Under the pieces are notes generated by a model. It searched no databases. It worked only from the letters and a program-made list of their open reading frames with translations, and was not told the DNA's origin. Positions 15,299 through 38,821 of a stretch of DNA of 64,000 nt are shown here, in pieces; positions within the stretch are counted from its first letter, which is position 1, and every line of letters starts with the position of its first letter. The stretch is taken from the NCBI RefSeq assembly GCF_000295095.1, contig NZ_JH806634.1, forward strand, positions 121,285 through 185,284, read 5' to 3'. The translations under genes were made by a program, and so were the position numbers. This DNA comes from Actinomyces timonensis DSM 23838. Its GTDB lineage: Bacteria > Actinomycetota > Actinomycetes > Actinomycetales > Actinomycetaceae.

Positions 15299-15351
15299 CG
15301 AGACCGGGCGAACAGCACGGCGAAACCGGGCGAACAGCACGGCGAGACCGG
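15299..15351 (+). repeat. Dispersed 22-nt repeat, copy A (two and a half units)
   Basis: Unit 1 begins GAGACCGGGCGAACAGCA at 15300, unit 2 begins GAAACCGGGCGAACAGCA at 15322, and a partial unit GAGACCGG begins at 15344. The period is exactly 22 nt. It lies between the convergent ychJ and old-yellow-enzyme genes. Copy B, in inverted orientation, lies on the other side of the latter gene. Confidence 0.85.
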
Positions 15352-15418
15352 TTCTGCGGTGTCGCAGCAGGGCGGTCGAGACCGGTAGAGGCCAGCCCCG
15401 CCAGCGGGGCAGGGAGCC

Positions 15419-16603
15419 TCAGCGCCAGGCGCCCCGCCAGTATTGGATCGGCAGCCCCGCCTCGCGCCAGCCGTTGACGCCGAGCTCATGGGCCCAGCGC
15501 ACCGGCAGATAGGGGTCCCGCAGGGCCGGGCGCCCCACGGCGATCGCGTCGGCATCGCCCGCGGTCAGGATCGCCTCGGCCTGCTCCGCTGACTCGATGA
15601 CCCCCACGGTGGCGACGACGACGCCCGCGCCCGGCCCGCCGTCGGCCGCCGAAGCGGCGAGAGCGGCGCGCGCCTGGGCAGCGCAGGGCACCTGGTAGCC
15701 CGGGCCCACCGGGACTTTGGCCGGGACGTTCCCACCGGTCGAGACGTGGATGGCGTCGACGCCGGCCGCCGCGAGCTCGAGCGCGAAGGCCGCGGTCTCC
15801 TCCCCGGTGAGGCCCCCGTCGGCCCAGTCGGTGGCCGACAGGCGGATGCCGAGCGCCCGCGGGGCAGAGCCAGCGCCGTCCCGCCCCGCACTGCCCCTTC
15901 CGGCACTGCCCCGCTCGGCGTCGTCGATGGCGCGGCGCACGGCGGCGACCACCTGCAGCGGGAAGCGGCGGCGCCCCTCCTCATCGCCCCCGAAGGCGTC
16001 GGCGCGCGTGTTGGACAGCGGCGAGAGGAACTGGTGGATGAGGTAGCCGTGCGCGCCATGGATCTCGATGAGGTCGTACCCGGCGTGGATCGCCCGCCGA
16101 GCGGCCTGCCCGAACGCCTCCACAAGGCGCGCGATCCCGGCCTCGTCGAGCTCTCGCGGCACCGCGTGGCCCTCGCTCGGGTAGGGGATCGCGCTGGGGG
16201 CCACGAGATCCCAGCCCTCGAGCGTCCCCGCGCGGGCGCCCTTCACATCCGGCCGCCACGGGAGCGTGCCCGCCTTGCGGCCACCGTGCCCGAGCTGCAC
16301 CCCGGCCAGCGCCCCGCCGTCGTGAATCGCCTTGACGATGCGGCGATGCCCCTCGACCTGCGCGTCATCCCAGAGGCCCAGGTCGAACTCGGACAGGCGC
16401 CCCTCGGGGCTCACGGCCGTGGCCTCGACGATGACCGTGCCGAACCCGCCGACGGCGCGCGTGCCGTAGTGCAGCACGTGCCAGTCGGTGGCGACGCCGT
16501 CGCGCGCCTCGACGCTGTACATGCACATGGGCGGCAGCCACAGGCGGTTGCGGGCGGTCAGCGGGCCGATCTGGAGGGGCGTGAGGAGCGCTGGAGCAGT
16601 CAT
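15419..16603 (-). CDS. Old-yellow-enzyme-family NADPH dehydrogenase (NamA/YqjM-like)
   Basis: Encodes 394 residues forming one FMN-binding TIM barrel. Signatures include the N-terminal LLTPLQIGPLTARNRLWLPPMCMYS (YqjM-type with Cys26-like position), VQLGHGGRKAG, DLIEIHGAHGYLIHQFLSPLSNTRADAFGG and ADAIAVGRPALRDPYLP near the phosphate site. Such enzymes reduce activated alkenes, nitro compounds and other electrophiles. ATG 16603 is chosen. It is a single-gene unit enclosed by inverted copies A and B of the 22-nt repeat family. Confidence 0.92.
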   Translation of the reverse strand: MTAPALLTPLQIGPLTARNRLWLPPMCMYSVEARDGVATDWHVLHYGTRAVGGFGTVIVEATAVSPEGRLSEFDLGLWDDAQVEGHRRIVKAIHDGGALAGVQLGHGGRKAGTLPWRPDVKGARAGTLEGWDLVAPSAIPYPSEGHAVPRELDEAGIARLVEAFGQAARRAIHAGYDLIEIHGAHGYLIHQFLSPLSNTRADAFGGDEEGRRRFPLQVVAAVRRAIDDAERGSAGRGSAGRDGAGSAPRALGIRLSATDWADGGLTGEETAAFALELAAAGVDAIHVSTGGNVPAKVPVGPGYQVPCAAQARAALAASAADGGPGAGVVVATVGVIESAEQAEAILTAGDADAIAVGRPALRDPYLPVRWAHELGVNGWREAGLPIQYWRGAWR

Positions 16604-16720
16604 GGGACGACGCTACGACCATCCGAGGCCGATGCACAGGGGTAGGCCGGGGGGTGCTCACGGTCTCGTGGGCGGGGACCAGGAACGGCGGGGCGGATCG
16701 CCGCCCGGGGCCGAGGCGGA

Positions 16721-16773
16721 CCGGTCTCGCCGTGCTGTTCGCCCGGTTTCGCCGTGTTGTTCGCCCGGTCTCG
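16721..16773 (-). repeat. Dispersed 22-nt repeat, copy B (inverted)
   Basis: On the minus strand from 16773 it reads a GAGACC unit (with one change, AACA for AGCA context), a GAAACC unit and then GAGACCGGT, the same order as copy A. It lies in the divergent gap between the old-yellow-enzyme gene and the patatin gene. Confidence 0.85.
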
Positions 16774-16793
16774 ATGGGGGAGGGCGGGAGGGG

Positions 16794-16799
16794 TAGCGT
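16794..16799 (+). promoter_or_regulatory. -10 box TAGCGT for a leaderless start
   Basis: TAGCGT ends 6 nt before GTG 16806. Confidence 0.6.
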
Positions 16800-16805
16800 G
16801 GCGCC

Positions 16806-17750
16806 GTGACCTCGCGCAACCAGCAGCCCGGCTACTACCCCTACGGGCACCCCCTGCACGCTCCCGCGCCCGTGGCCGCGCGGATCGACGACGTCGCCCT
16901 CGTCTTCGAGGGGGGCGGCATGCGCGGCGCCTACACCGGGGCCCTCGTGCGCGCCCTGCTGGAGGAGGGCCTGGAGTTCGGCTGGGTCGGCGGCATCAGC
17001 GCCGGCGGCACCAACGCCGTCAACATGGTCACCCGCGACACCTGGCGCGCCCGCGAGGCCTACCTCGGCATGCCACTGCTCGGCGACGCCGGCGGCTGGG
17101 GCAGCTTCGCCCGCGGCCGCGGCTACTTCAACTCCGACCGCATCTACCACCACACCTCCGCCGAGGATGAGGAGATGCCCGTCGACTGGCCCGCCCTCGA
17201 GGCCTCCGACGTCGAGCTCGTCCTGGGCGCCTTCCGCTGCGACACCGGCGAGCAGGTCTACTTCCACCGCTCCGACATGCCGACCCCCGCCGAGCTCCTC
17301 CTGCGCGCCCAGGCCTCGGCCTCGATGCCGCTTCTCATGCCCGTGGTGGAGATCGACGGCGCCCCCTACCTCGACGGCGCCCTCGGCCCCGGTGGAGGCT
17401 TCGCCGTCGACGCCGCGCTCGCCGACGGGTATGAGCGCCTCCTCGTCATCTCCACCCGCCCCGCCGGCTACCGCAAGCCCGAGGAGAAGCGCCCGGAGGT
17501 CTACCGCCGACTCCTGCGCCAGTACCCGGCGGCCGCCGAGGCGCTCATCGAGCGCCCCCGCCACTACAACACCACCCTGGAGGACCTGGAGCGGCGCTGC
17601 GCCGAGGGCAGCGCCTACCTCTACTGCCCCGACCGCATGGACATCGCCAACGGCGAGCTGCGCTACGACCGCCTCACCACCGCCTTCGAGGCCGGTCTAG
17701 CGCAGGCGAAGCGGGAGATGCCCGCGATCAAGGCGTTCCTCGGGCTCTGA
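16806..17750 (+). CDS. Patatin-like phospholipase (YjjU/RssA type)
   Basis: Encodes 314 residues. The oxyanion-hole motif EGGGMRG, the nucleophile elbow GISAGG with the catalytic Ser, and the catalytic Asp in YLDGALG (family DGG/DGA motif) are all present in the right order. Patatin enzymes hydrolyse acyl esters of phospholipids or other lipids in the cytosol or at the membrane. GTG 16806 is chosen because TAGCGT lies 6 nt upstream, a leaderless arrangement. A palindromic hairpin follows the stop. Confidence 0.88.
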   Translation: MTSRNQQPGYYPYGHPLHAPAPVAARIDDVALVFEGGGMRGAYTGALVRALLEEGLEFGWVGGISAGGTNAVNMVTRDTWRAREAYLGMPLLGDAGGWGSFARGRGYFNSDRIYHHTSAEDEEMPVDWPALEASDVELVLGAFRCDTGEQVYFHRSDMPTPAELLLRAQASASMPLLMPVVEIDGAPYLDGALGPGGGFAVDAALADGYERLLVISTRPAGYRKPEEKRPEVYRRLLRQYPAAAEALIERPRHYNTTLEDLERRCAEGSAYLYCPDRMDIANGELRYDRLTTAFEAGLAQAKREMPAIKAFLGL

Positions 17751-17757
17751 GCCGTTC

Positions 17758-17775
17758 CCGCGCGGGCCCGCGCGG
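17758..17775 (+). terminator. Perfect 18-nt GC palindrome after the patatin gene
   Basis: CCGCGCGGGCCCGCGCGG is self-complementary and begins 8 nt after the stop. It lies between convergent genes and may serve both. Confidence 0.55.
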
Positions 17776-17832
17776 AGGCCTCCTCCGGGCTGCGCCTCAG
17801 TTGCCTCGGGTACGTCACGCATCGTGCGCGTC

Positions 17833-18402
17833 TCAGTGCGGGCGAGCGACCCTGTAGCGCTCGATCCGCTCGCCGTCGAACCCGAAGGGCAGGATCGCGG
17901 GGACGGGCGCGCCTCCGTCGAGAGCCGCGGCGAGGCGCGCCAGGATCGTTCGCTCATGCGGCGGGACCCGCTCGGGCAGGTCGGCCAGGGAGAACCACTC
18001 CAGGCCCGCGCACTTCGCGCTCTCCATGATCCGCGGCTCGCCGGCCCAGGCGCGCGCGGTGAAGAAGAAGTCGACGCGCTGCTCCAGCGCCGCCCCGCCG
18101 ACGTCGTTCGAGCGGTGCAGCGTCGTCAGCGGCTCGATCCGGTCCGGGTCGACGACGATGCCGACCTCCTCGGCCGCCTCGCGCGCGGCCGTGGCAGTGA
18201 CGGGCTCGCCGTCGTCCACATGCCCGGCGACGCCGCAGGCCCAGTACCCGTCCATGTAACCGGTGCTCTGCCGCAACTGCAGGAGCACCCGCGTCCGGCG
18301 CGACGGCGCCGCCTCGCCGGCCTCCTCCCGCATGAGGAGGAGATAGGCCGCGGGGATGAGGGCGAAGGGCTGAACAGGCGAGGCGGGCGGGGGTACAGTC
18401 AT
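17833..18402 (-). CDS. NUDIX hydrolase
   Basis: Encodes 189 residues. The NUDIX box is complete: G-x5-E-x7-REAAEEVGI within VAGHVDDGEPVTATAAREAAEEVG. The strand before it (YWACGVAG) and the DFFFTARAW segment after it fit the fold. These enzymes cleave nucleoside diphosphates linked to another group; the substrate cannot be told. ATG 18402 has no ribosome site but has TATGGT exactly 6 nt upstream on the minus strand, so a leaderless mRNA is likely. It diverges from the hydrolase gene whose ATG is 3 bp away. Confidence 0.88.
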   Translation of the reverse strand: MTVPPPASPVQPFALIPAAYLLLMREEAGEAAPSRRTRVLLQLRQSTGYMDGYWACGVAGHVDDGEPVTATAAREAAEEVGIVVDPDRIEPLTTLHRSNDVGGAALEQRVDFFFTARAWAGEPRIMESAKCAGLEWFSLADLPERVPPHERTILARLAAALDGGAPVPAILPFGFDGERIERYRVARPH

Positions 18403-18414
18403 GGAATGACCATA
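18394..18414. promoter_or_regulatory. Bidirectional leaderless promoter with interleaved -10 boxes
   Basis: TACAGT (18394-18399) ends 6 nt before the plus-strand ATG at 18406. On the minus strand TATGGT (18414-18409) ends 6 nt before the ATG at 18402. Each -10 box sits inside or next to the start of the opposing gene, so both transcripts would start at their first codon and the two polymerases would compete for the same 21 bp. Confidence 0.65.
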
Positions 18415-19470
18415 AACGAAACGCCCGATGCGGGTTCGGGTCAGGTCCCCCCTGAGCCCGGGGGAGTGCGCGCGGACCAGGAATGGATCGTCGCCGACGA
18501 CGGACGCCGCCTCGCCCTGCGCGTCTGGGCGCCCGCGGACGGATCGCGGGCCAGTGCGGGAGGCGAGCCACCCGCCGAGGGAGGCTCGCCGTCGCCCCGG
18601 CCTCGCGCCGTCATCCAGCTCGTCCACGGCATGGGCGAGCACACCGCGCGCTACGACGCCTTCGCCCGCCGCGCCGTCGCCGCTGGCTACGCCGTCGTGG
18701 CCGACGACCACCGCGGGCACGGCCTGACCATCGCCTCACCGGAGGAGAGCGGCCACACCGCCGACGCCGACGGCGCCGAGAGGATCCTCGCCGACCTCGC
18801 CCAGGTCCGGGGCTGGATCGCTCACGCCTTCCCCGGCCTCCCCGTCATCCTCATGGGCCACTCCTGGGGCTCCATCCTGGCGCGGGTCCTCGCCCCCCGC
18901 CTCGGCGCGGGCCCCGGGGCGGATCCCGCCACCGCCATCACCGGTCTCATCCTCGTGGGCACCGCCGGAAGCGCCGGGATCCTCGCGGTCATCGGCCCGG
19001 CCCTCACCCGCGCCCTGTGCCGCGCCCGCGGGCCGCGCCGGCGCCAGAAGCTGCTCGACACCCTCGTGCAGGGCCCCTACAGCAAGCCCTTCGCCCCGAC
19101 CCGTACCCGCTACGACTGGCTCAGCCGGGACGAGGCGATCGTCGACGCCTTCGTGGCCGACCCTCTGTGCGGATTCGACTACACCAACGCCTTCTACCGC
19201 GACCTCGTCGACCTCGTGCGCAAGGCCTCCAGCCGAGCCGTCTTCGCCTCCACCCCGGTGGGGCTGCCGATCCTCCTTCTCTCCGGGGGGCAGGACCCGG
19301 TCGGCGCGATGGGCAAGGGGCCGCGCTGGGTGAAGCAGCGCTACGCCAGGGCCGGGGTGAACCCCCTCGGCCTGCGCCTCTACCCGGGCGCGCGCCATGA
19401 GGCGCTCAACGAGACCAACCGCGATGAGGTCATCGGCGACGTCCTGGAGTGGATCGCGCGCCTCGTCTGA
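18406..19470 (+). CDS. Alpha/beta hydrolase, monoacylglycerol-lipase-like
   Basis: Encodes 354 residues. Features are VIQLVHGMGEHTARYDAFA (the HG oxyanion region and lid helix of lysophospholipase/MGL enzymes), VADDHRGHG, the nucleophile elbow GHSWGS, the acid in LSGGQDPVGAMG and the catalytic His in LYPGARHEALNE. The family hydrolyses lysophospholipids or monoglycerides. The first about 65 residues are Gly/Pro/Ala-rich linker. It is not a MenH candidate by motif. The ATG is 3 bp from that of the divergent NUDIX gene; TACAGT is 6 nt upstream. Confidence 0.88.
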   Translation: MTINETPDAGSGQVPPEPGGVRADQEWIVADDGRRLALRVWAPADGSRASAGGEPPAEGGSPSPRPRAVIQLVHGMGEHTARYDAFARRAVAAGYAVVADDHRGHGLTIASPEESGHTADADGAERILADLAQVRGWIAHAFPGLPVILMGHSWGSILARVLAPRLGAGPGADPATAITGLILVGTAGSAGILAVIGPALTRALCRARGPRRRQKLLDTLVQGPYSKPFAPTRTRYDWLSRDEAIVDAFVADPLCGFDYTNAFYRDLVDLVRKASSRAVFASTPVGLPILLLSGGQDPVGAMGKGPRWVKQRYARAGVNPLGLRLYPGARHEALNETNRDEVIGDVLEWIARLV

Positions 19471-19669
19471 GCCCTGCTTGGCCGTGCCCGGAGGGGGTCG
19501 ACGGCGCCCGGCCGCCTCCCAGGAGCGCCCGGCCACGGGCGCCACGGCGCGGCGCCGCCCAGGCCCGCGCGCTGCCCTCCTTGCTCGGCGTCGTTTTGTG
19601 GGATCCGTACAAGAGCGCGTGGGGCGAGCCTGCGTGGGTCCGGGGTATCCCGCGCGGGGAGAGCCCGCA

Positions 19670-19675
19670 TACCGT
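19670..19675 (+). promoter_or_regulatory. -10 box TACCGT for leaderless bioY
   Basis: TACCGT ends 6 nt before ATG 19682; no ribosome site is present. Confidence 0.6.
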
Positions 19676-19681
19676 GGTCCC

Positions 19682-20248
19682 ATGATCCAGAAGACCCCGT
19701 CAGCGACGTCCACGGCTCGCGCCACGACCGCCGCGCCCACCTCTCGCCTGGCCCTGGCCGCGCGCGAGACCGCCCTCATCGGCCTCGGTACTGTGGCCCT
19801 CGCCCTCATCGGCCAGATCTCGCTCCCGCTGCCCTTCACCCCGGTCCCGGTGACCCTGGGGTCCCTCGCCGCCCTCGGCGTCGGCGCGGTTCTCGGCAGC
19901 CGCCGGGGCATCGCCTCCTCCCTCCTGCTCGCCGCGCTGGCCGCCGTCGGCGCCCCCGTCCTCGCCGGCTGGAGCAGCGGTGTGACCGCCTCCTTCGGCT
20001 ACGTCCTCGGCTACGCCCTGGCCGCGGGGCTCGCCGGCCGCGTCGCCCGCTCGGGCGCCAGCCTGCCCGTTCGCTTCGCCCTCATGCTCCTCGCCTCGAG
20101 CTCTGTGTTCGTCCCCGGCGTCATCTGGCTCAAGATCGCCCTCGGGGTCGGCTGGAGCAAGGCCATCGCCCTGGGCCTGACCCCCTTCCTCATCGGCGAT
20201 GTCCTCAAGACCGCCTTCATGACGGTGGTGACCACCAAGCGCCGCTGA
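19682..20248 (+). CDS. bioY: BioY biotin transporter substrate-binding component
   Basis: Encodes 188 residues of hydrophobic protein with the BioY signature: LIGQISLPLPFTPVPVTLGSLAALGVGAVLGSRRG, then GAPVLAGWSSGV, a FGYVLGYALAAGLAGR helix and the C-terminal KIALGVGWSKAIALGLTPFLIGDVLK. Six membrane helices are expected. BioY is the S component of ECF-type biotin uptake systems and may work alone or with the shared EcfAAT module, which is not in this window. The start is set by the TACCGT box 6 nt upstream. A perfect 36-nt palindrome lies downstream. Confidence 0.93.
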   Translation: MIQKTPSATSTARATTAAPTSRLALAARETALIGLGTVALALIGQISLPLPFTPVPVTLGSLAALGVGAVLGSRRGIASSLLLAALAAVGAPVLAGWSSGVTASFGYVLGYALAAGLAGRVARSGASLPVRFALMLLASSSVFVPGVIWLKIALGVGWSKAIALGLTPFLIGDVLKTAFMTVVTTKRR

Positions 20249-20265
20249 GCGCGCGCTATCGCTTT

Positions 20266-20301
20266 CGCGGCCGGCCCGGGCGATCGCCCGGGCCGGCCGC
20301 G
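20266..20301 (+). terminator. Perfect 36-nt palindrome after bioY
   Basis: Bases 20266-20301 are exactly self-complementary around GATC (20281-20286 core CGATCG), starting 17 nt after the bioY stop. An 18-bp stem-loop in RNA is expected; no T-tract follows. Confidence 0.65.
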
Positions 20302-20438
20302 CGCGTCGCGTTGGGAGGCCGGGCTCGCGTCGCGCCGGGGAGGGCCGGGGCGCGGGGTGGCGAGGGCTGGCGAGGGCGGATCGCGCGCGAGGTGACGCGC
20401 TGTGCCTTCCGGCCCACGATTCCTCCCGGCGGGGGCCC

Positions 20439-20444
20439 TATCGT
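20439..20444 (+). promoter_or_regulatory. -10 box TATCGT for a leaderless start
   Basis: TATCGT ends 6 nt before ATG 20451. Confidence 0.6.
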
Positions 20445-20450
20445 TTCGGC

Positions 20451-21458
20451 ATGAGCGCCGACCTGTCCGTCCTCGACCCTGTCCCCCTGTCCCGTGGACG
20501 CGACCGGGGCGCCGCCGTCGCCGAGATGGTCGAGCTCGCGCGCGTGGCCGATAGCGCCGGATACGCCCGCTACTGGATCACCGAGTACCACGCCTCGCCC
20601 CTCTACCTGTCCTCGGCGACCCCGATCCTCCTGGGCCAGGTCCTCGCCGCCACGCGGCGGATCGGCGCGGCCAGCTGCTCGATGCTCCCCAACCACCCGC
20701 CCCTCGTCGTCGCCGAGCAGTTCGGGACCCTGGCCACGCTCTACCCCGGCCGGGTCGGGATCGGGCTGGGGCGCGCGCCCGGAACGGATACGAGGACGGC
20801 GGCGGCCCTGCGCAGGGGCTCGGCGGACCCCGCCGCGTTCACATCGAGCATCACCGAGACCCTGGAGTACCTGGGGCACTGCGAGCCGGGCGGGCCCGAG
20901 CGCGGGGTTCGGGCGGTCCCGGGGGAGGGGACCCGGCCCCCGGTCTGGGTGCTCGGCTCGTCCGTCAATGGCGCGAGGGTCGCGGGCGCGCTCGGCCTGC
21001 CCTTCGTCGTCGCCTCGCATTTCGCGCCCTCGCAGGCCGAGGCGGCCGTGGCCACCTACCGATCGGTCTTCGACGCCTCCGCCCCCACGGCCACCATCGA
21101 GGCGCCGCGCGTGGCAGCGGCGGTGAACGCCGCCGTCGCGCCCAGCGAGGAGGAGGCGCGCCGCCTCTTCTCGACGGCGATGGCCTCCGCGGCGCGGGTC
21201 GTCTCCGGGGCGGCGGGCCCGCTGGAGCCGCCGCTGGAGGACCCGGAGGGCTGGCGGGCGCTGGCGGCTGGGAGGGACGGTGTCGTCGAGGAAGTGATGC
21301 GCCTGTCCTCCGTGGGGGAGCCCGACGCCGTGGCAGCCGATCTGCGCGAGCTCGAGGAGCGCTGGGGCCTGGAGGAGATCCTCGTCCTGTCGGATATCCA
21401 CGACGCCGCCGCCCGCCACCGCTCCTACGAGCTCCTCGCCTCCGCCTGGCACTCCTGA
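20451..21458 (+). CDS. Luciferase-like (LLM class) flavin-dependent oxidoreductase
   Basis: Encodes 335 residues of the bacterial-luciferase fold. Characteristic segments are SVLDPVPLSRG at the start, YWITEYHASPLYLSSATPILLGQVLAATRRI, MLPNHPPLVVAEQFGTLATLYPGRVGIGLGRAPG and the C-terminal region with IHDAAARHRSYELLA. This subfamily (MsnO8-type) uses flavin from a separate reductase; substrates are unknown. It is leaderless by the TATCGT box 6 nt upstream. Repeat copy C lies just downstream. Confidence 0.88.
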   Translation: MSADLSVLDPVPLSRGRDRGAAVAEMVELARVADSAGYARYWITEYHASPLYLSSATPILLGQVLAATRRIGAASCSMLPNHPPLVVAEQFGTLATLYPGRVGIGLGRAPGTDTRTAAALRRGSADPAAFTSSITETLEYLGHCEPGGPERGVRAVPGEGTRPPVWVLGSSVNGARVAGALGLPFVVASHFAPSQAEAAVATYRSVFDASAPTATIEAPRVAAAVNAAVAPSEEEARRLFSTAMASAARVVSGAAGPLEPPLEDPEGWRALAAGRDGVVEEVMRLSSVGEPDAVAADLRELEERWGLEEILVLSDIHDAAARHRSYELLASAWHS

Positions 21459-21483
21459 CCCACTCATCCCCCTCCCCTATGAA

Positions 21484-21584
21484 CGAGACCGGGCGAACAG
21501 CACCGCGAGATTCGGAATTGCCGCGTGGTTTCGGATCTCGCGGTGCTGTTCGCCCGGTCTCGCCGTGCTGATCGCCCGGTCTCG
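21484..21584. repeat. Dispersed 22-nt repeat, copy C (self-inverted hairpin)
   Basis: A left arm at 21484-21510 and a right arm at 21536-21562 are perfect 27-bp inverted repeats separated by 25 nt, and a second unit (with GATCAGCA) extends the right arm to 21584. Both inner arms share a private variant, CACCGC instead of CACGGC. It could form a long hairpin between the LLM gene and the next gene. Confidence 0.85.
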
Positions 21585-21626
21585 GCGAGGGGTGAGGGGG
21601 TGGGCACTATGGGGCAGGATGAGGGC

Positions 21627-22382
21627 ATGCCCACGGTCATCGTCCGCTCCCGATTCGGGCGCGTCCTCACCCTCCTCGTTGCCGGGCTCGGGGCCGCGCT
21701 CGCGGTGACGATCGGCGTCCACGACGGCGCCCGGCACTTCCTCATCGCCCTGGCCTGCGCGCTCGCCGCGACGGCGGCCGCGTACGCCCTGTGGTGGCAG
21801 CCCGAGCTGCGCCTCGACGTCCGCGGCCTGACCGCGCGCAACCTCCTGGTCACCCACCGCGTCGGCTGGGGCGCCTACCAGCGCTGCGGTGGCCGCTGGG
21901 GCCTGGAGATCATCACTGACGACGGCGCCCGCGTCCCCGTCTCCGCAGCGCCCCGCCAGGGTGGCCTCTCCATCGGCATCAACCGGCAGATCGAGCGCTC
22001 GCGCGCCGCCGTCGGGGATGGCCTGGAGGAAGGCCCGAAGGGGGGAAGGGGAACGACTGGCGCGCCCGAGGAGCTCCTCCCGGGCATCGGGGCGCGCGCC
22101 AGATCGGGCGAGGAGGGCCGCCCCATCGTGGTCGCCCTGCCCGCCGAGCGCGCCGCCGCTCTCATCGAGGCCTACCGCGCCCGGCTCGGGGGCGCCACGC
22201 TGACCACCGGCACCCGCACCGGCACCGGCACTGAGCCTGGCACTGCGCCCGGCGCTGAGACCCCTCCAACCGCCGCTGCCCTCTCGCGCGAGCGCAGCGC
22301 CCAGCGCAATCCCGGGGCGGTCGCTGTGATATCTGTCGCTGCTCTCGCCGTCGTCGTGGCTGGGACGCTGGTCCTGCTCTAG
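21627..22382 (+). CDS. PH-like domain membrane protein
   Basis: Encodes 251 residues. Two adjacent N-terminal helices ([18 protein letters not shown] and [20 protein letters not shown]) are followed by a bacterial PH-like strand region ([45 protein letters not shown]), a variable loop, and a C-terminal helix ([19 protein letters not shown]). This arrangement is common in actinobacterial proteins annotated as bPH-domain proteins; the function is unknown. ATG 21627 has CAGGAT 6 nt upstream; an ATG at 21609 is an alternative. Confidence 0.7.
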
Positions 22383-22535
22383 GGCCGTGAGCGGTAGCAC
22401 AGGAACGGTGTCACCCTCGCCATGGCGCGCTGGGCGGGCTCGCGACTAGCCTTGGCCCGCTGTGCGCCTCGCGCGGCGTCGGATCGGATGCCGCGTCCTC
22501 CCCGGGCGCTCCCCAGACGGAAGAAGAACCCACCT

Positions 22536-30400: not shown

Positions 30401-31606
30401 GTGACCACCTCGCCTGCCCTCCCGCGTCCCCTCGCCCTCCCGGACTTCCCCTGGGACACGCTCGCCCCCTACCGGGCGCGCGCCGCCGAGCACCCCGGCG
30501 GCGTCGTCGACCTCGCCGTGGGCACCCCCGTGGACGACACCCCCGCGATCGCCCGCGAGGCCCTGGCAGCGGCCTCCAACGCCCCCGGCTACCCCGCCGC
30601 CGTCGGCACCCCCGCCCTGCGCGCCGCCATCATCGACTGGGCCGCCCGCCGCCGCGGCGTCACCGGCCTGACCGACGCGCACGTCATCCCCACGATCGGC
30701 TCCAAGGAGTCCGTCGCCCTCCTGCCCCTCCATCTCGGCGCGCGCCCCGGCGACCTCGTCCTCCACCCCCGCGCCGCCTACCCCACCTACGACGTCGGCG
30801 CCCGCATCGCCGGGGCCACCCCCGTCCCCGTCGACACCGACGCCGACCCCGCTACCTGGGAGCTCCCCGACGGCGCGGGCACCCCCGAGCATCCGATCGT
30901 CATGATCTGGCTCAACAGCCCCGGCAACCCCGATGGCCACGTCCTCGACGTCGCCCAGCTCGCCCGGATCATCGCCTGGGCGCGCGAGCGCGGCGCCGTC
31001 GTCGCCTCCGACGAGTGCTACGCCGAGCTCGGCTGGGAGGCCCCCTGGGACACCGAGCCGATTCCTAGCCTCCTCGACCCCCGGGCCACAGGAGGGGACC
31101 TGAGCGGGCTGCTCGCCCTCTACTCCCTGTCCAAGCAGTCCAACCTCGCCGGCTACCGCGCCGCCCTCCTCGCCGGGGACCCCGCGCTCGTCGGCGCCGT
31201 CACCGAGATCCGCAAGCACACCGGGATGCTCCCACCCGCCCCGATCCAGGCCGCCATGACCGCCGCCCTCGCCGACGACGAGCACGTCACCGCGCAGCGG
31301 GATGTCTACCGCGCCCGCCGCGAGGCGCTCGTCGGGGCGACGGCGGCCGCCGGCCTCGTGCGCGACCCCGCCTCCGTGGCGGGCCTCTACCTGTGGCTCG
31401 GCCTGCCCGAGGGCGCGGCGCCACGGGGCGCCTACGAGCTCGTCGGCGCCTTCGCCGAGCTCGGGATCGTCGTCGCCCCCGGTGACTTCTACGGCGAGGC
31501 CGGCGCCGGGCGCGTGCGCATGAGCCTGACCGACACCGACGAGCGCGTCGCGGCGGCCTGCGAGCGGCTGCGCTCGCCGCGCGCCGCCGAGCTCTTCGCC
31601 TCCTGA
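30401..31606 (+). CDS. dapC: Succinyldiaminopimelate transaminase DapC
   Basis: Encodes 401 residues, a class I/II PLP aminotransferase: VDLAVGTPVDDTP, PGYPAAVGTPALRAAI, IPTIGSKESVALLPLHLGARPGD, the NSPGNPDG and DECYAELGWE motifs, and the lysine in YSLSKQSNLAGYRAA. The sequence fits actinobacterial DapC, which makes N-succinyl-LL-diaminopimelate in the lysine and peptidoglycan pathway. dapD, the preceding step, is 2.1 kb downstream. GTG 30401 has GACAAT 6 nt before it. Separation from fdxA by an insertion means it needs this promoter of its own. Confidence 0.9.
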   Translation: MTTSPALPRPLALPDFPWDTLAPYRARAAEHPGGVVDLAVGTPVDDTPAIAREALAAASNAPGYPAAVGTPALRAAIIDWAARRRGVTGLTDAHVIPTIGSKESVALLPLHLGARPGDLVLHPRAAYPTYDVGARIAGATPVPVDTDADPATWELPDGAGTPEHPIVMIWLNSPGNPDGHVLDVAQLARIIAWARERGAVVASDECYAELGWEAPWDTEPIPSLLDPRATGGDLSGLLALYSLSKQSNLAGYRAALLAGDPALVGAVTEIRKHTGMLPPAPIQAAMTAALADDEHVTAQRDVYRARREALVGATAAAGLVRDPASVAGLYLWLGLPEGAAPRGAYELVGAFAELGIVVAPGDFYGEAGAGRVRMSLTDTDERVAAACERLRSPRAAELFAS

Positions 31607-31720
31607 GAGGTGACGCGGAGGTGACGGCGCGATCGCTACAGTGAGTCGGACCCTGGGGACCCAGGCCCACCGGCTCGAGGCGCCCGCCCGCGCGGAGCGC
31701 CGAACAGTGAGGAGACCGAT

Positions 31721-33142
<1,422 letters not shown>

Positions 33143-33196
33143 GGCGGGGCCCACGTGGCGGGAGCGGCTTCTTGAGAGCGCCGTCTTGAGATAGCG

Positions 33197-33352
33197 TTAC
33201 TCGGGTAGAAGGTGCTCCAGAACCTCGATCAGCGGCGGAATATCGTGCTCGAGCATCGACCAGACGCGTCTGTGATCGACCGAGTCGTAACCATGCGCGA
33301 TCACGTTCCTCGTCGTGCGGCTTGCAAGGCGTCCCAGAGGTGCGCCGGTGTG
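33197..33352 (-). pseudogene. hepT: HepT toxin remnant (C-terminal fragment)
   Basis: Starting directly after the antitoxin stop codon and in the same frame as it, 51 codons encode the end of a HepT/HEPN toxin. The catalytic RX4HXY motif is intact (RNVIAHGY) and is followed by the typical VWSMLEHDIPPLIEVLEHLLPE. A full HepT is about 110 residues, so the N-terminal half, including the start, is lost and no start codon is apparent. The fragment is probably a decayed toxin. Confidence 0.75.
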
Positions 33353-33658
33353 TCAGGCAGCATAGAGCTCCTGGGCGGTGCTCAGAACTGTGCGGGCGAT
33401 ATACGGGTTGCGCAGTTGCTCCGCGTCGACCAAGTCGACGGGCGCTCCTACACTGCTTTCAAGGTCGCTGCGCAGTGAGAAGAATGCATGGAATGTCCTC
33501 TCGGCGTCGGGCTTGTAGTCGACCAGTAGGTCGATGTCGCTGTGGGACGGATCGAATCTATCGGTCAGAGCCGAGCCGAAGAGACGCAGGCGAGCGACGC
33601 CGTGATGCTCGCAGGCGCGTGTGATCGCCTCGCGATCCAGTGCTAGGAGGGGGCTCAT
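33353..33658 (-). CDS. mntA: MntA-type nucleotidyltransferase antitoxin
   Basis: Encodes 101 residues of the minimal nucleotidyltransferase (MNT) fold: LRLFGSALTDRFDPSHSDIDLLVDY contains GS followed by the DxD metal motif. MntA antitoxins AMPylate HepT toxins to silence them. The C-terminus PYIARTVLSTAQELYAA matches complete members, so the gene looks intact although its partner downstream is a fragment. It forms a two-gene remnant in lower-GC DNA. Confidence 0.85.
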   Translation of the reverse strand: MSPLLALDREAITRACEHHGVARLRLFGSALTDRFDPSHSDIDLLVDYKPDAERTFHAFFSLRSDLESSVGAPVDLVDAEQLRNPYIARTVLSTAQELYAA

Positions 33659-33737
33659 TCCCGCATCATCTCATCTCGTGTGGCACGAGACCAGGCAGGG
33701 CTGAGCTCAAGTCCCCGGCAGGGAGCTCGGCTCCCGC

Positions 33738-34718
33738 TCAGTCGCGGCGCGGCGCGGCGTCGAACTCGATGCTCTTCCCGCCCCGGGGGAGGGCCTCGAC
33801 CGCCCCCGACTGCGAGTTGCGGCGGAACAGGACGTTCGAGGCGCCTGCGAGCTCATGCGCCGGCACCACGCGCGGCTCCTGGAACAGGCCGTGCCCGCCG
33901 GGGACGACGCCGCCGGACGGCATGACCGACACCCTCGTGCCCGCCGTGATGTACAGCCCGGCCTCCACCACGCAATCGTCGCCCAGGGGGATGCCCAGGC
34001 CCGAGTTGGCCCCCAGCAGGCAGCGCTCGCCGATGCTCACGCGCCGCAGGCCGCCGTCGGAGAGCATCCCCATCGTGGAGGCGCCGCCGCCGATGTCGGA
34101 GCCGTCGCCGATGATGACGCCCTGCGAGACGCGCCCCTCCACCACCGAGCGGCCCAGGGTGCCCGCGTTGTAGTTGACGAAGCCCGACGCCAGGACCGAC
34201 GTCCCCTCGGACAGGTAGGCGCCCAGGCGCACGCGGGCGCCGTCGGCGATCCTCACGCCCTTGGGGACCACGTAGTCCGCCATCTGCGGGAACTTGTCCA
34301 CCGAATGCACGTGGACCGGGCGGCCCAGGGCCCGGCGCAGGCGCATGCGCGTCTCCTCGAAGCCCTCCGCGGCGCAGGGCCCGGCCCCCGTCCACACCAC
34401 GGTGGGCAGGCGGGAGAAGATGCCGTCCAGATTCACCGTGTTGGGCTTGGCCAGATGATGCGAGAGCACGTGGAGGCGCAGGTACGCGCCGGCGACCGTC
34501 TGCGGGGCATCGTCGAGATCCGCCCAGGTGCGCACCACCGTGGTGTGAACGCCGCGCGCCTCGTCCTTCGTCTCCATCGCGGTGAGCGTGGCCAGCAGGT
34601 CGGCGTGGCCGTCGGCCGGCTCCTCGCCGAGGATCGGCTGCGGGTACCAGACGTCGAGGGTGGAGCCGTCGTCGGTGACGGTGGCCAGGCCGAGGCCCCA
34701 GGCGCTTCGCGTTGTCAT
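33738..34718 (-). CDS. dapD: Tetrahydrodipicolinate N-succinyltransferase
   Basis: Encodes 326 residues, the actinobacterial form of DapD. It shows a left-handed beta-helix with repeated hexapeptides (VRIADGARVRLGAYLSEGTSVLASG, SQGVIIGDGSDIGGGASTMG) and the FQEPRVVPAHELAGASNVLFRRNS end. It transfers succinyl from succinyl-CoA to tetrahydrodipicolinate in lysine/mDAP synthesis, upstream of DapC. The leaderless TAGGCT box ends 6 nt before ATG 34718. It diverges from the histidine phosphatase gene. Confidence 0.95.
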   Translation of the reverse strand: MTTRSAWGLGLATVTDDGSTLDVWYPQPILGEEPADGHADLLATLTAMETKDEARGVHTTVVRTWADLDDAPQTVAGAYLRLHVLSHHLAKPNTVNLDGIFSRLPTVVWTGAGPCAAEGFEETRMRLRRALGRPVHVHSVDKFPQMADYVVPKGVRIADGARVRLGAYLSEGTSVLASGFVNYNAGTLGRSVVEGRVSQGVIIGDGSDIGGGASTMGMLSDGGLRRVSIGERCLLGANSGLGIPLGDDCVVEAGLYITAGTRVSVMPSGGVVPGGHGLFQEPRVVPAHELAGASNVLFRRNSQSGAVEALPRGGKSIEFDAAPRRD

Positions 34719-34724
34719 GGCCCC

Positions 34725-34730
34725 AGCCTA
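34725..34730 (-). promoter_or_regulatory. -10 box TAGGCT for leaderless dapD
   Basis: Reads TAGGCT on the minus strand, ending 6 nt before ATG 34718. Confidence 0.6.
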
Positions 34731-34803
34731 CGGGAGGAGTGCCGACACGGCTCGACTCTCCCGGTATCCGGGCCGGGCCCACCTGGGTGGCACAATCGCA
34801 TCC

Positions 34804-35478
34804 ATGGAGCGCACCACGATCCACCTCATGCGCCACGGCGAGGTCCACAACCCCGAGGCGGTCCTCTATGGGCGCATGCCCGGGTACCACCTCTCCGAGC
34901 TCGGCCAGCGCATGGCGGCGCGCGTCGCCGAGGTCCTGCGCTCCACCGATCACGACATCGCCGCCGTCATCACCTCCCCCCTGGAGCGCGCCATCGAGAC
35001 CGGCGCGCCCACCGCGCGGGCCTACGGGCTGGAGGCGACGACGGATGAGCGCCTCATCGAGGCTGGCAACCATTTCGAGGGCGTCGCCGTCAATCGGAAC
35101 CGCTGGGTCCTGGCCCACCCGCGCCACTGGCCCTACTACACCAATCCCTTGCGCCCCTCCTGGGGTGAGCCCTACACCGAGCTCGTGGCCCGCATGAGCG
35201 GCGCCATCCGCTCCGCGCTGCCCGTCGCGCGCGGCCGCGAGGCGCTGCTCGTCTCCCACCAGTTGCCCGTGTGGGCCACGCGGCTCTGGGTGGAGGGCCG
35301 CCCCCTGGCGCACGACCCCCGGCACCGCCAGTGCGCGCTCGCCTCCCTGACGTCCCTCACCTTCGACGGCGGGACGCTCGTGGGCGTGGACTACTGGGAG
35401 CCCGCTGGCGAGCTGCTGCGCGTGGCCGAGGACATGGTTCCCGGGACCTCCGCCGCGAGTGAGAAGGGAGCAGCGTGA
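34804..35478 (+). CDS. Histidine phosphatase family protein
   Basis: Encodes 224 residues. The phosphohistidine motif LMRHGE begins at about residue 8, with the second catalytic region TSPLERAIETGAP, the acid region HFEGVAVNRN and the second His in LLVSHQLPVWATRL. This is the phosphoglycerate-mutase-like superfamily; which phosphate ester it hydrolyses is unknown. ATG 34804 is chosen because earlier in-frame positions fall in the dapD promoter. The next gene overlaps by GTGA, so they are probably cotranscribed. Confidence 0.88.
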   Translation: MERTTIHLMRHGEVHNPEAVLYGRMPGYHLSELGQRMAARVAEVLRSTDHDIAAVITSPLERAIETGAPTARAYGLEATTDERLIEAGNHFEGVAVNRNRWVLAHPRHWPYYTNPLRPSWGEPYTELVARMSGAIRSALPVARGREALLVSHQLPVWATRLWVEGRPLAHDPRHRQCALASLTSLTFDGGTLVGVDYWEPAGELLRVAEDMVPGTSAASEKGAA

Positions 35479-36797
35479 CCTCGGACAAGAAGCAGGAGGA
35501 GAAGCCGGAGAAGCGGGCGGAGGGCGCGCTCGAGGAGGGCGCCGAGGCGCGCCGGGAAGCCGCCGCCGAGGCGGGGGCCACCAGCGCTGGGAGCGCCGCG
35601 AGTGGCGACTCCGCGCCGAGCGGCGAGAGTCCCGAGGCACCTGGGAGCGCTGCGAGTGCTGAGAGCGCCGAGGACGCGAACGACGTCGAGAGCCCCGGGG
35701 ACGCAGAGCACCCCGAGGAGCATGGCGGCGCTGAGGAGAGCGAGACCGCCGCGGGTGGCGCGGAAGGCACGGCAGGCGGGGCGAGCACTGTCAGCGCCGC
35801 AAGCATCGTCAGTGCCGCAAGCGCTGGCAGCCCGGATGCGGCGCCGCCGTCGTTCCGGCCGGTGAGCGCGGGGAGCCCTGTCTCCCCCGGGAGCCCAGCG
35901 GGCCCGGCGAGTCCGAGCAGCCCCGCCACCGCGCAGGAGGCCCCCGACGCCGTCGCGCCGGTGGCCGAGCCGAAGAAGGGGCTCATCCGCCGGGCGTCGT
36001 CGAAGAACGACGAGGTCGTCACCATCAAGGTCCGGGAGATCTTCGACATCGTCGACGCCCGCGAGGCGCAGGCCGAGGCCGAGCGCCTCGCGGCGGAGCG
36101 GGCCGCTGCCCAGCCGAGTTGGACCGGGCAGGACTTCGTGTGGTGGAACACCGCCGCAGTCCTCACCGCCGCGCGCGCCGGGCGCCGACCCAACCCCGTC
36201 TCGCCGATCATCGATCCCGTGCGCAGCTCCTTCGGCTCGGGGGAGTGCATGCTGGCCAGCTGTGACGCCGAGCTGCTCATGTGGCGGCGCGGCGACGCCA
36301 CCTACAACCCCTCCCGGGGATTCTTCCTCGCGGGAGGGCCGGTGGGCCTGGCCCTGACCGCCGCGTTCTTCAGCGGGCAGGCCGTCGTCAACAAGAAGCG
36401 GCGACGCGCCGCCGCCGCGGACGCCGTCGAGAAATGGCGGCACCTGGCCAATGCCCGGCTGACCGTGTCCACGCACGGGATCTACATCGGCACGGGCGAG
36501 GGCATCATGCCGGTGGGGTACCACGAGGTGCAGGAGGTGGCCTCCACGGGCCCGGGAGAGATCGTCATGGCGGCGAGCAACGCCAAGGGCACCGCGCGCT
36601 GGAAGCTGCGCGGCCAGTGGGCCGAGCTCGTCCTCGTGCTGTGGTCGGTCCTGTACATGCCCGAGCACCCTCAGGTGGTGGGCCGCACGTGGCTGCCCCA
36701 GGGCTGGCTGGATCACGCGGCGGCGAATGGCTATCCGGTGGACACCTCCACTTGGCCCCGATTCACCCCGAACCCGGATCCGCCCTCCCTCCCCTGA
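35475..36797 (+). CDS. Hypothetical membrane protein with low-complexity N-terminus
   Basis: Encodes 440 residues. Residues 1-165 are Glu/Ala/Ser-rich low complexity. After a basic patch (LIRRASSKNDEVVTIKVREI) a helical stretch, a membrane segment (FFLAGGPVGLALTAAFFSGQAVV) and a PH-like end follow (LTVSTHGIYIGTGEGIMPVGYHEVQEV, WAELVLVLWSVLYMPEH). It overlaps the upstream phosphatase stop by GTGA. No named family is recognised. The architecture recalls the PH-like genes at 21627 and 40668, so a shared membrane-associated role is possible. Confidence 0.65.
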   Translation: MTSDKKQEEKPEKRAEGALEEGAEARREAAAEAGATSAGSAASGDSAPSGESPEAPGSAASAESAEDANDVESPGDAEHPEEHGGAEESETAAGGAEGTAGGASTVSAASIVSAASAGSPDAAPPSFRPVSAGSPVSPGSPAGPASPSSPATAQEAPDAVAPVAEPKKGLIRRASSKNDEVVTIKVREIFDIVDAREAQAEAERLAAERAAAQPSWTGQDFVWWNTAAVLTAARAGRRPNPVSPIIDPVRSSFGSGECMLASCDAELLMWRRGDATYNPSRGFFLAGGPVGLALTAAFFSGQAVVNKKRRRAAAADAVEKWRHLANARLTVSTHGIYIGTGEGIMPVGYHEVQEVASTGPGEIVMAASNAKGTARWKLRGQWAELVLVLWSVLYMPEHPQVVGRTWLPQGWLDHAAANGYPVDTSTWPRFTPNPDPPSLP

Positions 36798-36799
36798 AG

Positions 36800-36834
36800 C
36801 GAGACCGGGCGAACAGCACGGCGAAACCGGGCGG
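36800..36834 (+). repeat. Dispersed 22-nt repeat, copy D (truncated)
   Basis: A full unit beginning GAGACCGGGCGAACAGCA at 36801 and a second unit GAAACCGGGCGG that is cut short at 36834. It starts 3 bp after the upstream gene's stop. Inverted partner: copy E at 38773-38821. Confidence 0.85.
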
Positions 36835-36883
36835 TTTTCCACAGGCCGGCGCTGGTCGGGGCGGTGTTGGCGGGTTATCCACA
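36835..36883 (+). other. Two DnaA-box-like sites 40 bp apart
   Basis: TTATCCACA (36875-36883) is a perfect DnaA box and TTTTCCACA (36835-36843) differs by one base. Both face the same way. They lie in the gap between the repeat copy D and the DUF6318 lipoprotein gene. No other origin feature is present. Confidence 0.5.
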
Positions 36884-37034
36884 GATCTGCGAGAGGGCCT
36901 GGCGCGCGGGCCGGGCGGGCCCTAAGGTGGGGGCCGACGGCGAGGCCGCCGTCACTGGGGCCGACCTGGGGCCTCGGATCCATCCCCTGGTCCATATCCG
37001 CCCGCTCGCTTCCTGCTTGGAAGGCCCCAGACCC

Positions 37035-37820
37035 ATGGCCCCCACGCTTCCCCGCACCCCCGCCCGCGCCTTTGGCGCCACAGGATCTCGACGACCCCCT
37101 GGCCCCGGTACACAACCGCCCCGTCGGCGCCGACCGCGCAGGCACCTCGCGACAGCGGCGGGCGGGCGCTGGGCCCACCCAATCGCCCTCATCCTGACCG
37201 CCTGCTGCGCCGCCAGCCTGACACTGCTGACCGCCTGCGCCAAAGACGCGCCCCCGACCGAAGTCACTGGAACCCTGCCCACACGCTTCTTCTCCACCCC
37301 CGACGCCAGCGCAGATGCTTCAGCAACCCCCGCCGCAAGCGCATCGCCGTCCCTCAGCCCAGAGCTACAGGCTCAACGCGCCAGCGCACTGGCCGAGCCC
37401 AAACCAGTCATACCGCCGGAGGCCAGTGAGAACACCGAAGAAGGCGCCGTCACCGCCGCCTTTTACTTCCTCCAACTCTACCGCTACGCCTTCATCACCG
37501 GCGACACCACCGACCTCGCCGCCATGAGCGAAGACAGGTGCACGTTCTGCTCATCGGCAGCCAACGATGCCACCAAGCTCCACCAGGAAGGCGGATGGGC
37601 CAACCCTTGGGAACTCGATATTCAAAGTATCGACTATATCCCCAAAGCAAATGGGAAAGACTATGATGGAGTTAGAGTAAAAGTGCAAGTTGGTGATTCC
37701 ATTACAGTTAACGGGGCGGGGGATCAAGTGCGGCACAACACCAAGCAGGAAACAATATTTGTCGCCTTGCGATACTATGACGGTTCGTGGCATATTGGCG
37801 AAACAGGAGTGGAGTCATGA
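37035..37820 (+). CDS. DUF6318-type lipoprotein
   Basis: Encodes 261 residues. A basic N-terminus leads to a hydrophobic core and a lipobox (LLTAC), so the protein is a probable lipoprotein with a very long n-region of about 45 residues. A Ser/Ala/Pro linker (about 85-125) is followed by the DUF6318-like domain with a Cys pair (RCTFC) and the strand ALRYYDGSWHIGETGVES. The gene's 3' third (37620-37820) is much richer in A+T than the window average. It overlaps the PKD gene by ATGA, and the two lie between inverted repeats D and E. ATG 37035 is chosen; the frame is open to 36864. Confidence 0.75.
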   Translation: MAPTLPRTPARAFGATGSRRPPGPGTQPPRRRRPRRHLATAAGGRWAHPIALILTACCAASLTLLTACAKDAPPTEVTGTLPTRFFSTPDASADASATPAASASPSLSPELQAQRASALAEPKPVIPPEASENTEEGAVTAAFYFLQLYRYAFITGDTTDLAAMSEDRCTFCSSAANDATKLHQEGGWANPWELDIQSIDYIPKANGKDYDGVRVKVQVGDSITVNGAGDQVRHNTKQETIFVALRYYDGSWHIGETGVES

Positions 37821-38653
37821 CCGCTTTGACGATTGCATATTGCGCAATGGCACTACTCGTCGCCCAGACAATGCCAGCCACCCAAGGTGTGGGAACCGAT
37901 GATCAGCAGTATTTCGAAGCCCACGGCCACGGCAACATGGTTGCCGCAGAGTCCTTGACATACGAGGAAGTGCCGGTTCAAAATTCCGCTCCGCCAGCGG
38001 GTTCTGGAAACGCTGCGGTCGGCTCATCTGGCGCTCCCGCAGTGTCAGCGGCATCGCCTCAAGACAGCCCAACCGGAGGACACTGGAACTGCTGGGTGGA
38101 GGAGATCAGCGATCTCAACAAAACGGGGCACTGCACCCTGCAGAGCGACGACACCCCAGCGGACCCAGCTCCCGCCGCCCCGGCCCCCGCGCCCATCGTG
38201 CTCACCTCCCACGACGTGGCCACCCTCATCGTCGACGGCTCCGGCGTCTTCATCCAGCCGCCCGGCGGCACCGTCCTGCTCCACATGCCGCTGATCGCCT
38301 ACACCAACCCCACCACCAGAACACTGACCACCAGCGTCGGCGGCACGAGTGTTGACGTCGAGGTCACCCCCGCCACCTACACCTGGAACTGGGGAGATGG
38401 AACCACCTTCTCCACCACCGATGCCGGCCAGCCCTACCCCAACCAGAGCGTCACCCACCTGTACGCCGCCACAGCCGACAACGTCGTCGTCTCACTGACC
38501 ACCACCTGGACCGCACGCTTCAAGCCTTCCGGCGCCGCCGACTGGCAACCCGTCGACGGCTACGTCACCACCACCCAATCCGCCCCACCCTTCAACATCC
38601 GCCGACTCATCCCCTACCTGTCCGACGACGCAGAAGAACACCAAGGCCACTAA
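37817..38653 (+). CDS. Secreted PKD-like domain protein
   Basis: Encodes 278 residues. A short N-terminal hydrophobic helix (MTALTIAYCAMALLVAQTM) acts as a signal or anchor. A low-complexity region is followed by a PKD-like module (YTWNWGDGTTFSTTDAG, NQSVTHLYAATADNVVVSLTTTW), which is an Ig-like extracellular fold. It partners the DUF6318 lipoprotein and is translationally coupled to it; AGGAG precedes. Such pairs recur in Actinomyces. The function is unknown, probably a surface or secreted assembly. Confidence 0.75.
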   Translation: MTALTIAYCAMALLVAQTMPATQGVGTDDQQYFEAHGHGNMVAAESLTYEEVPVQNSAPPAGSGNAAVGSSGAPAVSAASPQDSPTGGHWNCWVEEISDLNKTGHCTLQSDDTPADPAPAAPAPAPIVLTSHDVATLIVDGSGVFIQPPGGTVLLHMPLIAYTNPTTRTLTTSVGGTSVDVEVTPATYTWNWGDGTTFSTTDAGQPYPNQSVTHLYAATADNVVVSLTTTWTARFKPSGAADWQPVDGYVTTTQSAPPFNIRRLIPYLSDDAEEHQGH

Positions 38654-38772
38654 CCCCCACCACACACCACACCGAACCGGCCTCGCTTCTCATTTCGACC
38701 GGTCTTGTCATGAAGACGCACCCTATTCGAACCGCGCGCCCCGATCACGCCTAACCGCCCACAAGAACAGAA

Positions 38773-38821
38773 TCTCGCCGTGCTGATCGCCCGGTTTCGC
38801 CGTGCTGATCGCCCGGTCTCG
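38773..38821 (-). repeat. Dispersed 22-nt repeat, copy E (inverted)
   Basis: On the minus strand from 38821: a GAGACC unit with GATCAGCA, a GAAACC unit with GATCAGCA, then GAGATTCTG. It ends the cassette begun by copy D. Confidence 0.85.

What the first reader, a model, noticed from the sequence alone, without database searches (positions are those of the whole stretch)
15299..38821. A 22-nt tandem repeat family in intergenic DNA with a fixed two-unit architecture
At 15299, 16721, 21484, 36800 and 38773 a repeat beginning GAGACCGGGCGAACAGCA occurs with a 22-nt period. In copies A, B, D and E the outer unit starts GAGACC, the second starts GAAACC, and A, B and E are followed by GAGA. There is one recurrent alternative (GATCAGCA for GAACAGCA). 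The fixed order argues against chance and for a defined element. It lies only between genes and resembles REP or MITE-like elements, but I know no described family of this form.
Basis: seen in the sequence. Interest (0 to 1): 0.75.

Follow-up and report, generated by a model that had tools for sequence, protein, structure and literature searches.

The report
Fixed-place intergenic repeats rewritten in concert
About 85 short tandem-repeat patches sit between genes of an Actinomyces bacterium at places largely shared with its sister species, yet in this species nearly all of them have been rewritten to one new sequence, as if the genome had changed its dialect.

Summary
The genome has 162 exact 18-mer hits in 85 clusters, 83 outside called genes: 55 one-sided arrays and 30 inverted pairs. 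The GAGACC-then-GAAACC order holds in 28 of 34 one-sided arrays with two or more exact units.

The exact unit is multi-copy only here (1 of 213 family genomes). Its 22-nt plan, core CGARACCGG[T/G]CGA plus about 9 variable nt, occurs in 6 of 213, all one genus, and abundantly in four: this species, A. denticolens, A. gaoshouyii and G018.

In every second 20-kb block of G018, 30 of 34 comparable sites hold an array. Yet the variable 9-mers show almost no locus memory (own-G018 .348, shuffled .333, p .046; within own .881), while inner flanks do. Chimeric leftover units remain. I read this as concerted evolution at fixed, dispersed sites.

No RAYT in 49 genus genomes; no viral, plasmid or Rfam match. 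One-sided arrays do not fold. A DnaA-box-like motif lies near 26 of 85 arrays. Function is inferred, not shown.

The parts
15299..15353 (+). Array A: units GAGACC, GAAACC, then partial GAGACCGGTT; a stray core at 15377
   Evidence: array at the same place in A. denticolens, A. gaoshouyii and G018
16719..16773 (-). Array B: units GAGACC, GAAACC, then partial GAGACCGGTC
   Evidence: array at the same place in A. denticolens and G018
21484..21584 (.). Element C: inverted pair, one + unit (21484-21505) and two - units (21536-21584); folds as a long hairpin
   Evidence: z -11.1 and -10.6; hairpin also in A. gaoshouyii and G018
36800..36844 (+). Array D: one full unit, a second unit that diverges into TTTTCCACAG (36835-36844)
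36875..36884 (+). TTATCCACAG, DnaA-box-like motif inside of array D
   Evidence: read directly; enrichment near arrays
38773..38821 (-). Array E: two units with the GATCAGCA form, then GAGATTC
   Evidence: array at the same place in A. denticolens (L115)
58554..58597 (.). Short inverted pair of the older type (core GGTCGA)
   Evidence: counterpart in A. gaoshouyii (L181)

Best explanation
A family of intergenic repeat elements, found here in one clade of Actinomyces, is built from 22-bp units: a conserved core CGARACCGG[T/G]CGA plus about 9 variable nt. Units stand as one-sided arrays or as two arrays facing each other (hairpins). SHOWN: most sites and orientations are shared with relatives about 14% diverged. 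SHOWN: the units at these sites are alike within a species and not locus by locus, so that in this genome a new unit (GGGCGA + [A/T]CAGCAC) has replaced nearly all ancestral units without moving the elements. INFERRED mechanism: ectopic, RecA-type gene conversion between dispersed arrays spreads unit variants. INFERRED function: the 22-bp spacing (two helix turns), the conserved core and the long retention suggest that the unit is read as double-stranded DNA by a protein not yet identified; inverted pairs between convergent genes may also end transcription.
For: Systematic sample: 30 of 34 own clusters with both flanks in every second 20-kb block of G018 (1.2 of 2.42 Mb) have an array there; of the 16 one-sided ones present, 15 keep orientation, 1 is a hairpin, 0 are reversed. 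The sample has 58 core clusters and about 541 called intergenic regions, so chance would give about 4 of 34. Of 84 relative clusters, 74 map within 250 bp of an own array; 43 of 44 one-sided pairs agree in orientation. Variable 9-mer similarity, ortholog/shuffled: own-denticolens .322/.319 (20 pairs), own-gaoshouyii .314/.309 (25), own-G018 .348/.333 (26), gaoshouyii-G018 .843/.708 (12); within own .881. Inner flanks keep memory.551-.559 against .426-.437, 0 of 500 shuffles, 14 pairs each. Of 169 own units 7 are ancestral type, 3 of them chimeric (new GGG core, old variable part). Convergent regions: 35 of 81 own arrays against 28 of 238 array-free regions.
Against: Conversion was not observed; one genome per species was available. 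No binding protein is known. Own-G018 orthologs are slightly more alike than shuffled (p .046). Turnover exists: 4 of 34 own clusters lack a core in G018, two of them looking like empty or deleted sites (C2:485148, C3:271027), and 4 of the 30 present differ in class (one-sided/hairpin; 5 of 27). One of 44 one-sided pairs is reversed. Long retention could reflect slow deletion instead of selection; I ran no control for retention of array-free intergenic DNA. Hairpin arms show no compensation at the A/T site (AA 22, AT 4, TA 4, TT 0), so nothing here favours selection for pairing.
Confidence: 0.55

Rival explanations
1. REPIN/MITE-like mobile element: inverted pairs are the mobile form, one-sided arrays are remains, and an unknown enzyme moves them.
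For: Inverted doublets with recurring loop types at many loci; multi-copy intergenic spread; 4 of 34 sites without a core in G018; a few copies in G027 and G030 fit a later expansion in four species.
Against: No Y1/RAYT domain in 49 genus genomes; places mostly shared; one-sided units as alike as paired units.941 against .945, both preselected by an exact 18-mer; no target duplication seen at the two sites aligned. Other transposase families were not sought.
Confidence: 0.17
2. DNA signal with species dialects: a protein reads the unit (uptake signal, or a nucleoid or replication protein together with DnaA), and protein and sites changed together in this species.
For: Conserved core with species-specific rest at shared places; TNTCCACAG near 26 of 85 arrays, also enriched in G018; an array directly behind dnaA in own and G018.
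Against: Few sites for an uptake signal (85 clusters in 2.93 Mb); no candidate protein; 12 of the own motif hits are one repeated loop; thinning toward the terminus is matched by fewer convergent regions.
Confidence: 0.17
3. Bidirectional transcription terminators or other RNA hairpins, homogenised as a by-product.
For: Element C folds very strongly (z -11.1 and -10.6); convergent enrichment; unrelated hairpin families in other Actinomyces.
Against: 55 of 85 clusters are one-sided and the four one-sided arrays of the window do not fold; array direction is not tied to gene direction in co-directional regions (13 against 10); no compensation at the A/T site.
Confidence: 0.08
4. Ends of cargo transposons with several 22-bp transposase sites, as in Tn7 or Mu (recalled).
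For: + gene - layouts are 16 of 24 near-neighbour pairs; a two-gene cassette occurs five times between arrays.
Against: The gene between A and B has the same neighbours in many genus genomes without arrays; no transposase among the translated enclosed genes by eye (family search only for three window proteins).
Confidence: 0.03

Closest known systems
REP / REPIN elements with RAYT (TnpA-REP)
   Same: Short intergenic species-specific families; inverted doublets forming hairpins beside singlets
   Different: No Y1 domain in the genus; 22-bp tandem units; singlets not more diverged; places shared across species with the sequence replaced
Neisseria DNA uptake sequence (DUS) dialects
   Same: Conserved short signal with species dialects; frequent inverted pairs in intergenic regions (PMC3630211, passages)
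   Different: Only 85 clusters here; tandem 22-bp arrays; no evidence of uptake or of a receptor
MITEs
   Same: Small inverted-repeat elements without genes
   Different: No autonomous partner known; no target duplication seen; one-sided arrays outnumber pairs 55 to 30
Mycobacterial interspersed repetitive units (recalled)
   Same: Dispersed intergenic tandem repeats in an actinobacterium
   Different: Longer units and no facing pairs (recalled); no sequence comparison made
Tn7/Mu ends with 22-bp transposase sites (recalled)
   Same: 22-bp repeated sites facing each other
   Different: The enclosed gene tested is an ancestral resident

Membership tests
REP/REPIN | RAYT (Y1 transposase) in the genome | tested here: not met
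   0 of 49 genus genomes; control positive in 5 of 14 known genomes
REP/REPIN | Each unit a palindrome that folds on its own | tested here: not met
   Four one-sided window arrays, six folds, z -0.46 to +0.89
REP/REPIN | Singlets more diverged than doublets (PMC3116915, passages) | tested here: not met
   .941 against .945 on units preselected by an exact 18-mer, which narrows any difference
REP/REPIN | Intergenic and multi-copy | tested here: met
   162 hits; 83 of 85 clusters outside called genes
MITE | Target-site duplication at empty sites | tested here: inconclusive
   Two candidate empty sites with diverged flanks, no duplication visible
MITE | Autonomous partner transposon | not tested
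   Only Y1 transposases were sought
DNA uptake sequence | Preferential uptake of DNA that carries it | not testable with these tools
   needs an experiment
DNA uptake sequence | Species dialects around a conserved core | tested here: met
DNA uptake sequence | Very high copy number (recalled) | tested here: not met
   85 clusters, 162 exact units in 2.93 Mb
Intrinsic terminator | Hairpin at transcript 3' ends | tested here: inconclusive
   Holds for inverted pair C, not for the one-sided arrays; transcript ends unknown
Known structured RNA | Rfam match at gathering score | tested here: not met
   0 matches in the window
Tn7/Mu-type transposon end | Cargo absent from the site in relatives without the ends | tested here: not met
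   Tested at A-B only: the enclosed gene has the same neighbours in array-free species

The most novel reading that the evidence does not exclude
The arrays are sites of a protein-read DNA signal with species dialects, possibly tied to replication: DnaA-box-like motifs lie near about a third of arrays, and an array stands directly behind dnaA in the two genomes looked at. Reader protein and nearly all sites would have changed together in this species. It would be, as far as I recall, the first such dialect system in a Gram-positive.
Probability: 0.2. Interest if true: 0.85.

Novelty: new variant of a known kind. Interest (0 to 1): 0.62.

Why it matters
Dispersed bacterial repeats are usually treated as mobile or dying sequence. 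Here most of about 85 loci keep place and orientation across species while their sequence is replaced almost everywhere in one of them. That makes the question of how dispersed sites change together in a bacterium (gene conversion, or co-evolution with a protein) directly testable with strain series and a pull-down. It also warns that sequence identity alone makes such a family look new to one species when its sites are old.

Tried and rejected
RAYT/REP: rejected. Family new to this species: my first reading was wrong; it holds only for the exact unit. Array as an oriented 3'-end element: suspected from stop codons beside arrays; not upheld, outer boundary stop 36 and start 19 of 55, co-directional 13 against 10. 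Cargo transposon: synteny of the enclosed gene at A-B speaks against it. Phage or plasmid vector: 0 viral contigs, 0 plasmid records. Replichore polarity: none evident in the listing (no test run). Terminus avoidance: rho -0.32 (p .013), but convergent regions also fall (rho -0.40), so confounded. 'Same slots filled by each lineage's own hairpin family': suggested by unrelated hairpins at the A site in other species; of 40 G035 hairpin loci fetched only 6 had syntenic gene pairs, coinciding with arrays in 0 of 3 G018 cases and 2 of 3 own cases, the own set being chosen around arrays: not supported. Compensation between hairpin arms: none at the A/T site.

Searches use clusters with at least two cores. 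In one search, 51 of 85 clusters had no usable flanks in the sample, and two of the 30 positive sites were mapped across about 2 kb. In one search one of the four misses (C1:455943) was not looked at further. Gene calls are from my own codon-score caller, which has visible errors (for example at 38846-40567), so boundary counts are approximate. Place lists are cut, their counts are whole. units are preselected by an exact 18-mer. 'Eighty-five arrays' means clusters with two or more cores, a set that overlaps with but is not identical to the 85 exact-18-mer clusters.
Full report
What is there. The five places contain a real 22-nt-period repeat: ten hits with up to 3 mismatches against 0.14 expected by chance. 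A and D lie on +, B and E on -, and C (21484-21584) is an inverted pair. A sixth, older-type pair lies at 58554-58597. In the whole genome (2.93 Mb, 4 contigs) the 18-mer GARACCGGGCGAWCARCA has 162 exact hits and none of its reversed control. They form 85 clusters: 55 one-sided and 30 with both orientations, in these 30 always + then -. By my own gene caller 83 of 85 overlap no gene.

Anatomy. From outside in, typically: a pyrimidine-rich tract, a GAGACC unit, a GAAACC unit, then a partial GAGACCGGTT, GAGACCGGTC or GAGATTC. The GAG-then-GAA order holds in 28 of 34 one-sided arrays with at least two exact units. Inverted pairs have 41 nt between the innermost 18-mers in 23 of 30 cases, with a few recurring loop types, one of them (GGTTTTCCACAGATC) in 12. 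Pair C folds far better than shuffles (z -11.1 and -10.6); the four one-sided arrays of the window do not (six folds, z -0.46 to +0.89).

Distribution. With one mismatch the exact unit is multi-copy only in this genome; 10 other genomes of 213 have one hit each. The generalised two-unit pattern with 8-10 free nt is found in 6 of 213 family genomes, all of the same genus: own 114, G008 129, G010 103, G018 182, G027 8, G030 2, reversed control 0 (the same for the genus). No viral contig, plasmid record or Rfam family matched.

Old places, new letters. In A. denticolens the intergenic regions of A and B hold arrays of the same plan with other letters. Of 84 relative clusters with at least two cores, 74 map within 250 bp of an own array; of the 44 pairs one-sided in both, 43 agree in orientation and 1 does not. 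Those loci were chosen for having arrays, so I also took every second 20-kb block of the complete relative G018: of 34 own clusters with both flanks there (51 of 85 had none), 30 have an array, 15 of the 16 one-sided ones with the same orientation and 1 as a hairpin; 3 of 14 hairpins are one-sided there. The sample holds 58 core clusters and about 541 called intergenic regions, so chance would give about 4 of 34. Two of the four misses look like empty or deleted sites.

Concerted evolution. In this genome at least 160 of 172 units carry [A/T]CAGCAC, and 168 of 172 the core GGGCGA; all units counted in the relatives carry GGTCGA and other 9-mers. Orthologous arrays, own against relatives, are hardly more alike than shuffled pairs (.322/.319, p .38.314/.309, p .18.348/.333, p .046), while gaoshouyii against G018 keeps clear locus memory (.843/.708, 0 of 2000), as to a lesser degree do denticolens-G018 (.568/.498, p .007, 9 pairs) and denticolens-gaoshouyii (.540/.472, p .028, 7 pairs); within own it is .881. 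The inner flanking sequence keeps memory against all three relatives (0 of 500 shuffles, 14 pairs each). The outer 15-nt tract, low in complexity, does so only against gaoshouyii (p .000, against .218 and .106). Seven of 169 own units keep an ancestral variable part; three of these already carry the new GGG core, as if an exchange had ended inside the unit. The simplest reading is conversion between dispersed arrays.

What it may do. Arrays favour convergent intergenic regions (own 35 of 81 against 28 of 238 array-free; G018 14 of 44 against 86 of 541, p .011), but array direction does not follow gene direction in co-directional regions (13 against 10). A DnaA-box-like TNTCCACAG lies within 150 bp of 26 of 85 clusters with two or more cores: 33 hits in 30.9 kb against 11 in 578 kb elsewhere (9 of them in 77.7 kb of other intergenic DNA), and 10 in 17.5 kb against 19 in 1,182 kb in G018. 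Twelve of the own hits are one repeated loop. An array follows dnaA directly in own and in G018; the next gene is dnaN by position only (one search failed). Arrays thin out toward the terminus in G018 (rho -0.32, p .013), but so do convergent regions (rho -0.40), so this is no independent evidence.

What it is not. No Y1/RAYT domain was found in 49 genus genomes. One-sided units are not more diverged than paired units (.941 against .945, preselected units), unlike the REPIN description (PMC3116915, passages). The gene between A and B has the same neighbours in many genus genomes without arrays, so the + gene - layouts (16 of 24 near neighbours, five of them copies of one DUF6318/PKD-like cassette) are not cargo transposons in general. 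Why this layout is the commonest I cannot say. Other Actinomyces carry unrelated dispersed hairpin families (G035 98 hits, G007 69, 0 in the other 47; G047 41 and G038 25, with 0-11 elsewhere and controls up to 5); whether they use the same sites was tested on few cases and not supported.

Literature. DUS dialects (PMC3630211, passages) are the nearest analogue for species variants of a shared signal. RepRanger (PMC12306157) and the stem-loop survey (PMC2267715), term searches and passages only, do not contain the word Actinomyces in the main text held. Eight listings showed no description of this family; the library is open-access only, so this is weak evidence of absence.

Verdict. A real, clade-restricted intergenic repeat family with old, mostly fixed sites and concerted sequence replacement. 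Function is unknown; my best guess is a DNA-level binding site, with transcription ending as a possible extra role of the paired form.

Noticed in passing
own genome C1:33177-35189, C1:656646-658672, C2:317560-319457, C2:386976-388936 and window 36800-38821: A two-gene cassette (DUF6318 protein plus a protein with a weak PKD match) occurs five times between arrays, in both directions; families were searched for the window copy only, the rest judged from translations.
   Followed up: partly
G018 C1 (sampled), dnaA at about 0.1-1.7 kb: Cumulative G-C skew has its minimum near 1.2 Mb, opposite dnaA: the leading strand looks C-rich, the reverse of the usual.
   Followed up: no
G035, G007, G047, G038: Unrelated dispersed hairpin families: GCGTAGGTTTCCAGTCGAAC (98 and 69 hits) and GCGGACGCACCWTAGRCC (41 and 25 hits).
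   Followed up: partly
own C1 near 303299, 338355, 502072, 693285 (inner side of arrays): A second palindromic repeat around GCRTTCYCACCGCAC: 5 places in the fetched own loci, 0 in the G018 sample, 0 in the window.
   Followed up: partly
own C1:1145414-1145534; L186 from 1750: An inverted-pair array containing TNTCCACAGG directly behind dnaA in two species, in the presumed origin region.
   Followed up: partly
own C1, C2 and C3 near-neighbour arrays: Neighbouring arrays less than 3 kb apart are mostly + gene - (16 of 24; + + 2, - - 3, - + 3), unexplained even when the five-copy cassette is counted once.
   Followed up: partly
window 38846-40567: Gene strand unclear: a - frame has a weak PLDc_N hit, an overlapping + frame was chosen by codon use.
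   Followed up: no
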